Source: a virus | DNA: 64,000 nucleotides | Strand: one strand, 5' to 3' | Virus record (IMG/VR): IMGVR_UViG_3300033153_008400 | Location: 1 to 64,000 of that record | Part shown: positions 1 through 7,985 of the stretch, piece after piece | How positions within the stretch are numbered: position 1 is the first letter of the stretch | Layout of the letters: each line of letters begins with the position of its first letter | Program-made: the position numbers and the translations under genes | The notes under the pieces: model-generated | The model's database searches: none | Seen by the model: only the letters and a program-made list of their open reading frames with translations | What the model was told of the DNA's origin: nothing

Positions 1-474
1 TAACATTTCTACCATACCTCTAACTTCATTCTCCTCATAAGGTTCATCAATATCTAGTATCCATTTCTTATCTGAGTCATCATTAAAAGCACCCACAACA
101 CTGTTATATGCTTTATGCACTTTGTTGTGAGTACCATCAATAAGTTGTAATGTAATTTTTTGAAGATGTTTCAATTGCATTTTCTTAAAACTTCTTCTGT
201 TAAGATTAATACCTGCTCTGGCATTAAATATCTTGCAAAGTTGTATAATCTCGGGCATGACAAATTCAAGATGTTTTAAAGATTTTATATAATATGCATG
301 TACTAATCTTGAATTATTGTTGGCACCATTGATCTTTCCCTTTTTGTGATCTTTCTTTCTTTGTAATACCTGTATAAAATAAAAATCATCTTCTGATCTA
401 AATTCTAAAAGCTCACTTATTTGTTTAAAGTTATTAAATTTTATTATTATATTAATAATTTTTAAATTCTCCAT
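1..474 (-). CDS. Hypothetical protein, 3' end outside window
   Basis: The frame is open from an ATG at 474 to the window edge (158 codons, no stop seen). The start lies inside the end of the PurA-like gene, overlapping it by 23 nt, which suggests translational coupling. The protein is basic and rich in Lys, Asn and Ile, beginning MENLKIINIIIKFNNFKQIS. A WILDID segment near residue 141 recalls DxD motifs of nucleotidyl-transfer folds such as archaeo-eukaryotic primases, but this is too little to assign a function. Confidence 0.7.
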   Translation of the reverse strand, partial: MENLKIINIIIKFNNFKQISELLEFRSEDDFYFIQVLQRKKDHKKGKINGANNNSRLVHAYYIKSLKHLEFVMPEIIQLCKIFNARAGINLNRRSFKKMQLKHLQKITLQLIDGTHNKVHKAYNSVVGAFNDDSDKKWILDIDEPYEENEVRGMVEML

Positions 475-1537
475 ATACAGAGTTAGATACCTTGATATTA
501 AACCATTCTGAGCATAATAACATAGCATCAAATTTGTCTTCTTCATGCATTTGATTACAACAAGTAACCATTAATGTCTGAGGATATCCTTTAGAATACA
601 GAGTCTCAATAGCAGCGCCATAATCTACTAATTCATAATCCAGGCGTGCTATTTTAAATGGACCTTGCCATTCATTCATATAATTTGTCTCATGATTATC
701 AAATTGAAGTTCTATTTCATCATCATGAAAACAACCTTCTCCGTGTCTGGTGTGATATGCTCTAGTAACACAATACACATGACGATCTTTGATTTTTAAC
801 TTATCACAGACCTCCATAGCATTCTTGCTAGTAGTATTTGCATATGTAACATTTGGAAAGGAACCATGGTCTTTATCTAATAGTACTCCTTGGGAGCCTT
901 CAAAGATTAGATTATCATATCTTAACAAATGTTCATAATCAGCTACAGCAAAGTTTAAAACTTTAATAGCTTTTATGAATTCTTCCATATCTCTTTCAAA
1001 CCAATCAGGCATAGGAACACAAGTATTCCTTACACTCATTTCTATTTGTATCAACTTTTCTTTAAAAGTAGGCATATGCATAAGATCGATAGCAGTTAAA
1101 TTAAGATTCTTTTTAATACTACGATGCATAGTTTTACCTACACCTAATCCACATGTACCATGAGATACATTTTTATCACAATTTCTATTATCATAAACAT
1201 CCCATGGTGTAGTTATTTTAGCCATAGGATGAAATACTAAGACAGGGTACTTAATTCCCTTACTCTTTAATACTTCCATCTCCCTAGCAATTGTAACTGG
1301 ATAAAATGTTGTGTGTTCTGAAAAATAAGTAGGAACATCTAAAAGTACTCCTGATCCAAAATTACTGCAGGTATGCTTGATGTCTCCTACATGGACAGTG
1401 TGTCCAGCCTGTTGACCTCCACTATATCTAATGACTATAGGTTTTTTACCAGCTTTACATAATTCATTAACAGTCATACCCTTTCCTTCATCGCCGTAGC
1501 CTAAGCCAACAACGATACTTGCTTTATTTTTATTCAT
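452..1537 (-). CDS. purA-like: Adenylosuccinate synthetase-like enzyme (PurA/PurZ family)
   Basis: The family joins aspartate to a purine monophosphate using a nucleoside triphosphate: IMP in PurA, dGMP in the phage PurZ branch that leads to diaminopurine DNA. Visible motifs are the P-loop-like GLGYGDEGKG (residues 11-20, with Asp16 and Lys19 in the catalytic positions), GGQQAGHTV with His46, HGTCGLGVGKT, the substrate segment FEGSQGVLLDKDHGSFPNVT, and RAYHTRHGEG. At 361 aa it is shorter than bacterial PurA (about 430 aa) and near the size of archaeal PurA and phage PurZ. The catalytic Asp is kept; PurZ is reported to have replaced it, so ordinary PurA chemistry or an intermediate enzyme is possible. 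Substrate cannot be decided by eye. Confidence 0.9.
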   Translation of the reverse strand: MNKNKASIVVGLGYGDEGKGMTVNELCKAGKKPIVIRYSGGQQAGHTVHVGDIKHTCSNFGSGVLLDVPTYFSEHTTFYPVTIAREMEVLKSKGIKYPVLVFHPMAKITTPWDVYDNRNCDKNVSHGTCGLGVGKTMHRSIKKNLNLTAIDLMHMPTFKEKLIQIEMSVRNTCVPMPDWFERDMEEFIKAIKVLNFAVADYEHLLRYDNLIFEGSQGVLLDKDHGSFPNVTYANTTSKNAMEVCDKLKIKDRHVYCVTRAYHTRHGEGCFHDDEIELQFDNHETNYMNEWQGPFKIARLDYELVDYGAAIETLYSKGYPQTLMVTCCNQMHEEDKFDAMLLCSEWFNIKVSNSVYGEFKNY

Positions 1538-7027: not shown

Positions 7028-7039
7028 TATTTACTATTG

Positions 7040-7120
7040 TCCAGGGAGTATGATTTGAACATACGACCTCTTTCTGTGTATGATACGAAAGTGCTCTGAA
7101 CCGAACTGAGCTATCCCTGA
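7040..7120 (-). tRNA. tRNA-like gene with enlarged 12-nt anticodon loop
   Basis: Acceptor TCAGGGA/TCCCTGG, D arm GCTC...GAGC, variable loop AGGTC and T arm GTATG-TTCAAAT-CATAC are all normal. The anticodon stem CTTTC/GAAAG however encloses GTATCATACACA, 12 nt instead of 7. One fold adds two pairs (GT/AC) plus a bulged A and leaves a 7-nt loop ATCATAC with CAT at the anticodon position flanked by T and A, which would make it a CAU tRNA (Met or Ile2 type). It may be functional but unusual, or decayed. Confidence 0.75.
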
Positions 7121-7297: not shown

Positions 7298-7303
7298 TCT
7301 TTG

Positions 7304-7450
7304 TCGGAAGGAGTCGATTTGAACGACTGACCTCTTGTATATGGTAATCCCGACAGGATTTTAACCTGCGACCTCCTGATTAAGAATCAGGTGCTCTAAC
7401 AACTGAGCTACGGGATTGGCAAGTGCTCTACCAAGCTGAGCTACCTTCCA
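7304..7450 (-). tRNA. tRNA split by an inserted tRNA-Lys in its anticodon arm
   Basis: The 5' part (7450-7418) gives acceptor TGGAAGG, D arm GCTC-AGCTTGGTA-GAGC and the 5' anticodon strand CTTG. The 3' part (7341-7304) gives CAAG, variable loop AGGTC, T arm AGTCG-TTCAAAT-CGACT and acceptor CCTTCCG. Between them lies a whole tRNA-Lys. Removing 73 nt rebuilds a 74-nt cloverleaf whose stem can be CTTGT/ACAAG with loop ACCATAT (CAT at 34-36, but C instead of U at 33). Whether the two parts are ever joined is unknown. Confidence 0.65.
7342..7417 (-). tRNA. tRNA-Lys (anticodon CTT), nested, with encoded CCA
   Basis: Perfect 7-bp acceptor AATCCCG/CGGGATT, D arm GCTC-AGTTGTTA-GAGC, anticodon stem CCTGA/TCAGG with loop TTCTTAA (CTT), variable AGGTC, T arm GCAGG-TTAAAAT-CCTGT, discriminator A followed directly by CCA. 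It is 73 nt plus CCA. The T loop has A at position 56 in place of the near-universal C, which normally pairs with G19. The gene lies wholly inside another tRNA gene. Confidence 0.9.
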
Positions 7451-7455
7451 ATTTG

Positions 7456-7574
7456 TTGGAAAAACAGGATTTGAACCTGTGGCCTTCATTATGTTGAACC
7501 CAACGTCCCTTACGAGACGTTGCTGGAGTCGAACCAGCCTAGAATGACGCTCTACCGAACTGAGCTATTTTCCA
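7456..7574 (-). tRNA. tRNA split by a 45-nt insert in its anticodon loop
   Basis: Acceptor TGGAAAA/TTTTCCA with discriminator A, D arm GCTC-AGTTCGGTA-GAGC, variable AGGCC, T arm ACAGG-TTCAAAT-CCTGT, and anticodon stem TCATT/AATGA enclosing 52 nt where 7 are expected. The extra 45 nt contain a second T-arm-like hairpin (GCTGG-TTCGACT-CCAGC, 7522-7538) and an 8-bp hairpin with a GUAA tetraloop (7502-7521). Depending on where the insert ends, the loop could be CTAACAT (AAC, Val), but the anticodon cannot be assigned safely. Confidence 0.65.
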
Positions 7575-7576
7575 AT

Positions 7577-7985
7577 TTGGGGAGTATCGTTTCTCCCCAA
7601 CGTCTTATGCTGCCTGTCTTACAGGAGCATAAAAAAGTGTAATAACTTTTCCAGTTATTGGTTTATCATTAATACCCATTTACTTCACTTTACAACTGTC
7701 AAAACCCTTCGTCCCCATATGACACAGGAAAATACTATTATAGGCTTTTATTTAAGTATCTATTCTCACGTATTCTAGCTTCAAGGAACCTGTGTCTGTA
7801 ACGGCAGGAGTGTTATTCTCGATCAACTTAATGTAGGCGAGCACTCCCAAGAGTGGAGACGCTGGGAATCGAACCCAGGTCCAAATTGCTAGATTCATAA
7901 CCTAACAGTACTAATAATGTTTTAAAAACTCCTATGCCTGACTAATACAGACCGTAAACCGTATCGTTTAGATAGGAGTTAAAAG
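7577..7985 (-). ncRNA. ssrA-like: Candidate circularly permuted (two-piece) tmRNA
   Basis: The transcribed order is acceptor piece (7985-7854), spacer (7853-7717), coding piece (7716-7577). The acceptor piece ends AATTTGGAC, T arm CTGGG-TTCGATT-CCCAG, then CGTCTCC-A. The coding piece begins GGGGACG followed by the tmRNA-like D-loop sequence GGGTTTTGACAG. GGGGACG pairs with CGTCTCC over 7 bp with a G3-U70 wobble, the alanyl-tRNA synthetase identity pair. The acceptor piece also has a 9-bp helix (7972-7980/7927-7935) around a possible pseudoknot. The coding piece holds a frame ending ...YAPVRQAA-stop (stop at 7605-7607) and closes with an 8-bp hairpin (7577-7600). An 8-bp helix in the spacer (7721-7728/7789-7796) brings the two ends together. 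CCA is not encoded. The tag start and first pseudoknot are uncertain. The 120 nt upstream (7986-8105) show no gene and may be leader. Confidence 0.7.

What the first reader, a model, noticed from the sequence alone, without database searches (positions are those of the whole stretch)
7577..7985. Circularly permuted tmRNA in a phage genome
On the minus strand the tmRNA 3' domain (T arm CTGGG-TTCGATT-CCCAG, acceptor CGTCTCC-A) comes before the 5' domain (GGGGACG, then GGGTTTTGACAG). The two acceptor strands are fully complementary with a G3-U70 wobble, the alanine identity pair. The 5' piece contains a frame ending in Ala-Ala-stop. Permuted, two-piece tmRNAs are known from alphaproteobacteria and some other lineages; I know of none in Bacteroidota or their phages. 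It could let the phage rescue ribosomes with its own tag or replace host trans-translation.
Basis: partly seen in the sequence, partly recalled or inferred. Interest (0 to 1): 0.85.

Follow-up and report, generated by a model that had tools for sequence, protein, structure and literature searches.

The report
Two-piece ribosome-rescue RNA in phage
A phage related to the gut crAss phages carries a working-looking, back-to-front gene for the RNA that frees stuck ribosomes, and at least 19 other uncultured viral contigs share this form, which looks like a separate branch from the three bacterial lineages where such genes are known.

Summary
Rfam RF04321 (tmRNA_permuted) matches 7605-7902(-) at 64.3 bits (cut-off 47, E 4e-10), and ARAGORN independently calls a permuted tmRNA with tag GKVITLFYAPVRQAA. 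I found 19 relatives in IMG/VR contigs. All keep the 7-bp acceptor stem and G3-U70 (20/20), the T arm and P2 co-vary (covariation 0.462 against 0.135 shuffled), and the tag frame is conserved, with a pseudoknot after it in most. This is a real, selected, two-piece tmRNA gene. Permuted tmRNAs in phages are not new as such (PMC9004378). What differs is the branch: GGTTTTGAC instead of GGTTTCGAC, no encoded CCA, unusual tags (K[TV]I..LF..Q[LV]RxxA or EMAMAA), and sometimes a tRNA inside the spacer. It resembles the one-piece tmRNA of a human-gut contig (L268) more than the alphaproteobacterial-type permuted references I had, which suggests a separate permutation in Bacteroidota or their phages. 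Host is not proven: the phage is crAss-like, but its nearest named relative is recorded from Leptolyngbya. No SmpB is encoded, so it would depend on the host's. Nested and interrupted tRNAs lie next to it.

The parts
7854..7918 (-). acceptor piece (3' domain): 3' strand of P2, T arm, acceptor 3' strand, A73; its 5' end is inferred
   Evidence: RF04321 match; coordinates; folds; co-variation
7862..7878 (-). T arm CTGGG-TTCGATT-CCCAG
   Evidence: 4 of 5 pairs with double changes in relatives
7855..7861 (-). acceptor 3' strand CGTCTCC (U70); A73 follows at 7854; CCA not encoded
   Evidence: pairs 100% kept in 20 sequences
7717..7853 (-). spacer (IVS) of 137 nt, predicted to be cut out by RNase P and tRNase Z
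   Evidence: processing inferred
7710..7716 (-). acceptor 5' strand GGGGACG (G3); predicted 5' end of the coding piece at 7716
   Evidence: G3-U70 in 20/20
7696..7706 (-). D-loop-like GGTTTTGACAG
7692..7697 (-). 5' strand of inner P2 (AGTTGT), pairs with GCAATT 7889-7884
   Evidence: co-varying helix 1, register from alignment A2
7665..7676 (-). 5' strand of outer P2 (GGTATTAATGAT), pairs with ATTATTAGTACT 7918-7907
   Evidence: constrained folds of window and L051; not tested by count
7641..7659 (-). hairpin AATAACT-GGAAA-AGTTATT with the resume codon GGA in its loop
   Evidence: unique in window, none in shuffles; same in L020, L051, L147, L207
7605..7652 (-). tag frame GKVITLFYAPVRQAA and stop TAA
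   Evidence: related tags in 12 class A relatives
7579..7602 (-). H-type pseudoknot after the tag: CGTT/AACG and GGGGAG/CTCCCC
   Evidence: stem 1 co-varies in 9 class A members
7455..7574 (-). adjacent tRNA (ARAGORN: Val AAC with a 45-nt insert); its 5' end probably sets the 3' end of the coding piece
   Evidence: (RF00005 55.8 bits); role inferred

Best explanation
It is a functional circularly permuted (two-piece) tmRNA gene. The transcript runs acceptor piece, spacer, coding piece. Host RNase P and tRNase Z cut at 7716 and 7854 and release the 137-nt spacer. The two pieces stay together through the acceptor stem and a long broken P2. CCA is added by the host, alanyl-tRNA synthetase charges the RNA through G3-U70, and with host SmpB and EF-Tu it enters stalled ribosomes, resumes at GGA, adds GKVITLFYAPVRQAA and terminates. 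One pseudoknot after the tag stands in for the usual ring of pseudoknots. The 3' end of the coding piece is made here by cutting the next tRNA, and in several relatives by a hairpin followed by U's. Most likely it raises ribosome-rescue capacity during infection under the phage's own tag. Shown: sequence, pairing, co-variation, tag conservation, absence of SmpB. Inferred: processing, charging, tagging and benefit. It belongs to a branch of permuted tmRNAs that looks closer to a one-piece, probably Bacteroidota, tmRNA than to the alphaproteobacterial-type permuted references at hand.
For: RF04321 and ARAGORN; 19 relatives match RF04321 at E <= 0.001, 18 over the cut-off; 93.9% paired cells against 77.0 shuffled, covariation 0.462 against 0.135 shuffled and <= 0.109 slid, G3-U70 20/20; tag family and A at -4 of the resume codon in all 20; pseudoknot stems co-vary, 27/27 and 35/35 pairs; no SmpB in G000 or 14 related contigs; GGTTTTGAC, no encoded CCA and AACTGGCGAA-type resume region shared with one-piece viral tmRNAs and gut contig L268, while alpha-type permuted L135 and L136 have GGTTTCGAC and encoded CCA.
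Against: No expression or processing data. Tag ends in RQAA rather than ALAA, so recognition by host proteases is uncertain. The window shows no recognisable promoter before the acceptor piece. Named relatives (Lbo-JY46, phi17:2, phi4:1, csAssE-Sib, Fpv2) lack the gene, so it is dispensable in the group. The GGTTTTGAC agreement is partly imposed by search patterns.
Confidence: 0.8

Rival explanations
1. A decoy: the RNA is charged and binds SmpB mainly to titrate it and block host trans-translation, as discussed for the TLD-only tmRNA of mycobacteriophage DS6A.
For: No phage SmpB, so it must compete with host tmRNA; a precedent is cited in PMC11915505 and PMC4131195.
Against: Tag frame, resume-codon context and the pseudoknot after the tag are conserved, which a decoy does not need.
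Confidence: 0.08
2. A decaying relic of a tmRNA picked up from a host.
For: The gene is sporadic among related phages, and the neighbouring tRNAs have inserts.
Against: Acceptor, T arm, P2, tag and pseudoknot are all intact and co-vary across 20 sequences.
Confidence: 0.07
3. A phage copy of the known alphaproteobacterial, betaproteobacterial or cyanobacterial permuted tmRNA, with no separate origin.
For: Same permuted order; the nearest named phage is recorded from a cyanobacterium; Melnitz-type phages carry alpha-type genes (PMC9004378).
Against: 42-82 bits in RF04321 against 100-153 for alpha-type contigs; GGTTTTGAC and missing CCA; resume region like one-piece L212 and L268. No tree was built.
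Confidence: 0.25
4. Chance assembly of tRNA fragments in a tRNA cluster.
For: Several tRNA genes or parts lie within 1 kb.
Against: E 4e-10 over 64 kb; homologous genes in 19 other contigs, many with no tRNA beside them.
Confidence: 0.01

Closest known systems
Rfam RF04321 tmRNA_permuted (two-piece tmRNA of alphaproteobacteria, betaproteobacteria and cyanobacteria)
   Same: Order of domains, acceptor and T arm, G3-U70, tag frame, score over the cut-off
   Different: GGTTTTGAC instead of GGTTTCGAC, no encoded CCA, lower score than alpha-type members, different tags
Two-piece tmRNA of phage Melnitz and other aquatic phages (PMC9004378)
   Same: Permuted tmRNA carried by a phage
   Different: Those are described as following the alpha, gamma and cyanobacterial lineages; Melnitz has a glutamine riboswitch; here neither was found (no riboswitch in the window)
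One-piece tmRNA of gut contig L268 (MT837283.1), tag GENNYALSA
   Same: GACCGGTTTTGACAG, AACTGGCGAA before and at the resume codon, GGACGAGAGTTCGAATCTC T arm
   Different: One piece, 389 nt, standard order (RF00023, 123.8 bits)
Nominally archaeal permuted tmRNA GCA-2688965 with tRNA-Ala in its spacer (PMC11915505)
   Same: Same architecture as L208, L216, L218 (tRNA-Ala UGC in the spacer)
   Different: Those three are virus contigs, and the window has no tRNA in its spacer; sequence identity with the MAG gene was not tested

Membership tests
Circularly permuted (two-piece) tmRNA | 3' tRNA-like domain encoded upstream of the 5' domain, separated by a spacer | tested here: met
Circularly permuted (two-piece) tmRNA | 7-bp acceptor stem between the two pieces with the G3-U70 alanine identity pair | tested here: met
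   100% paired, G3-U70 20/20
Circularly permuted (two-piece) tmRNA | T arm, D-like loop without anticodon arm, P2 joining the pieces | tested here: met
Circularly permuted (two-piece) tmRNA | Tag frame with resume codon and stop | tested here: met
   GKVITLFYAPVRQAA*, related tags in relatives, A at -4 in all 20
Circularly permuted (two-piece) tmRNA | Two mature RNAs made by removal of the spacer | not testable with these tools
   needs RNA end mapping
Circularly permuted (two-piece) tmRNA | Alanine charging and SmpB-dependent tagging | not testable with these tools
   needs biochemistry; no phage SmpB
alpha / beta / cyano permuted lineages | Lineage sequence features: GGTTTCGAC and encoded CCA as in the RF04321 consensus and alpha-type contigs | tested here: not met
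   GGT[TA]TTGA[CT] and no CCA in 20/20; L135 and L136 have both features, L137 was not located fully
Standard one-piece tmRNA (RF00023) | 5' domain before 3' domain, score over 47 bits | tested here: not met
   27.4 bits only, order reversed
Phage of Bacteroidota (crAss-like order) | crAss-like terminase, portal and capsid; Bacteroidota host | tested here: inconclusive
   Proteins crAss-like, but the best named match is a phage recorded from Leptolyngbya; host not shown

The most novel reading that the evidence does not exclude
A fourth, independent lineage of permuted tmRNA that arose in Bacteroidota or in their phages, spread among unrelated phages (crAss-like and others), and whose tag was re-made (KxIxLF..QLRAVA) so that proteins rescued during infection meet a different fate from those tagged by the host RNA.
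Probability: 0.4. Interest if true: 0.75.

Novelty: new variant of a known kind. Interest (0 to 1): 0.55.

Why it matters
Permuted tmRNA is a textbook case of a gene rearrangement tolerated by RNA processing, described for three main bacterial clades. A separate phage-borne branch would be a further origin to compare, would show that phages carry and exchange ribosome-rescue genes, and offers a test of why phages encode a tag of their own. It may also explain a stray 'archaeal' permuted tmRNA with a tRNA in its spacer as phage DNA.

Tried and rejected
The one genome-contig scan returned no tmRNA when checked. BLASTN of tmRNA regions against named phages gave T-arm, tRNA or chance matches, apart from the one-piece gene in L268. 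Named relatives searched with RF04321: none. The last viral scan for window-like tags gave only L051 again plus coding-sequence matches. Promoter idea: TAnnTTTG 46-54 nt before the T arm in 6 of 20 (simulated mean 1.1, maximum 5), supportive of Bacteroidota for those contigs but absent in the window. RNA ligase for the interrupted tRNAs: RtcB and RNA_ligase not found; the T4 Rnl1 search is uninformative because no control rang. One search was a query with a made-up peptide and carries no evidence. In some searches the L147 row was first read from an aligned copy with gaps; it was de-gapped for alignment A2 and re-extracted from the locus.

Full report
Observation. ARAGORN calls a permuted tmRNA with tag GKVITLFYAPVRQAA. 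The standard model RF00023 stays below threshold (27.4 bits). The window is part of a 122,743-bp IMG/VR record.

The phage. Terminase, portal and capsid resemble crAss-like phages. The best named match is Leptolyngbya phage Lbo-JY46 (terminase 39.5%, capsid 26.8%, portal 27.4%), followed by csAssE-Sib and Cellulophaga phi17:2 and phi4:1 for terminase, Flavobacterium phages for the capsid, and gut cr-phages for the portal. The host is therefore open: Bacteroidota is likely from the known hosts of crAss-like phages (general knowledge), while a cyanobacterium is on record for the nearest relative.

Relatives. A first pattern scan gave L020 and L051 among many unrelated tRNAs and tmRNAs, and further scans gave more. 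Twenty permuted genes were collected. Class A (13, with the window) has tags such as SKVITLSFAPVRLAA (L051), AKVITPSFTQLRAVA (L020), GKVINMFGQPQLRAVA (L147), PKVINLFEPQLRAVA (L207), GKTIPLFSNAQVRLAA (L211) and GKTINLFERTQLKAVA (L223). Class B (7) ends mostly in AMAA, in four of them after a short tag such as GEQVEMAMAA. Rfam confirms 19 of 19 relatives at E <= 0.001, 18 over the cut-off, at 42-82 bits; alpha-type contigs score 100-153. The nearest relative, L051, lies in a contig with a crAss-like terminase and a portal 30% identical to the window's.

Structure. On alignment A2 (spacer replaced by GAAA), acceptor, T arm and inner P2 give 93.9% paired cells against 77.0 shuffled, 55 double-change cells against 14.3, covariation 0.462 against 0.135, and at most 0.109 when slid by 1-3 columns. 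G3-U70 is in 20/20, although for 18 of the 20 no search pattern fixed U70. Outer P2 helices appear in constrained folds but were not counted. After the tag an H-type pseudoknot is present in 9 of 13 class A and all 7 class B genes: in class A the 3-bp core of stem 1 switches between CGT/ACG, CGC/GCG, CGG/CCG and AGC/GCT (27/27 pairs; 5 of 5000 shuffles as good), and in class B stem 2 co-varies (35/35; 3 of 5000). These stems were chosen by eye, so the shuffle figures are not blind tests. The base at -4 of the resume codon, the position of E. coli A86 (general knowledge), is A in all 20 (listing, read by eye). In the window the pseudoknot ends 4 nt before the next tRNA; in L206 a tRNA also follows closely, while L020, L147, L207, L223 and L236 have U runs after the hairpin.

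Mechanism. Shown: sequence, pairing, co-variation, conserved frame, no SmpB in G000 or 14 related contigs. Inferred from the two-piece tmRNA pathway (PMC3985003, PMC3968760): release of the spacer by RNase P and tRNase Z, CCA addition, alanine charging, SmpB-dependent entry and tagging. Why a phage carries it is not shown; extra rescue capacity during infection with its own tag fits best.

Compared with what is known. Phage-borne two-piece tmRNAs are known (53 predicted in a 2021 phage database, mostly marine or aquatic; Melnitz; PMC9004378). The tmRNA database describes three main bacterial clades (PMC11915505); its supplementary taxonomy could not be read here, so minor Bacteroidota cases cannot be excluded. 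The present branch differs by GGTTTTGAC, missing CCA and tag type, and matches the one-piece tmRNA at the end of a human-gut contig (L268: GGGGATGACCGGTTTTGACAG, AACTGGCGAA, tag GENNYALSA). That this is the Bacteroidales form is my recollection, not a test. Part of the GGTTTTGAC agreement is imposed by search patterns; the CCA and resume-region agreement is mostly not. Six contigs carry the Bacteroidota -7 element TAnnTTTG (general knowledge) just before the acceptor piece.

Spacer tRNAs. L208, L216 and L218 carry an intact tRNA-Ala(UGC) inside the spacer and L229 a tRNA-Met. PMC11915505 reports such a tRNA-Ala as unique to one nominally archaeal gene; these viral contigs suggest a phage origin for that record (inference).

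Verdict. Confirmed, functional-looking two-piece tmRNA; new variant of a known kind; interest 0.55.

Noticed in passing
window 7302-7451 (-): A tRNA-Lys(CTT) gene (7342-7417) sits inside what looks like the anticodon loop of another tRNA (halves 7418-7451 and 7302-7341, with matching acceptor, D, anticodon and T arms): a tRNA nested in a tRNA.
   Followed up: partly
window 7455-7574 (-), insert 7496-7540: tRNA (Val AAC by ARAGORN) with a 45-nt insert in the anticodon loop made of a T-arm-like hairpin and an 8-bp hairpin AACGTCTC-GTAA-GGGACGTT, which repeats the tmRNA acceptor words CGTCTC and GGGACG; perhaps a degenerate permuted tmRNA acceptor domain, perhaps chance. L211 also has a tRNA with a 63-nt insert next to its tmRNA.
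   Followed up: partly
window 7039-7120 (-): tRNA with an enlarged anticodon loop: ARAGORN reads a 4-base anticodon (atca), or Asp(atc) with a 5-nt insert.
   Followed up: no
L208, L216, L218, L229 (tmRNA spacers): Intact tRNA-Ala(UGC) or tRNA-Met gene inside the spacer of the permuted tmRNA gene.
   Followed up: partly
PP438436.1 and PP395634.1 (Leptolyngbya phage Lbo-JY46, Microcystis phage Mel-JY01): Both are recorded from cyanobacteria but are the nearest named relatives of a crAss-like phage and of a phage otherwise closest to Flavobacterium phage immuto; their host records may deserve a check for heterotrophs in the cultures (speculation).
   Followed up: no
window 452-1537 (-): Diverged phage adenylosuccinate synthetase (PF00709 145 bits; below NCBIfam cut-offs for PurA and PurZ); whether it serves modified DNA is open.
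   Followed up: partly
window 7927-7980 (-): A 9-bp inverted repeat AACTCCTAT...ATAGGAGTT followed by T's lies just upstream of the acceptor piece.
   Followed up: no
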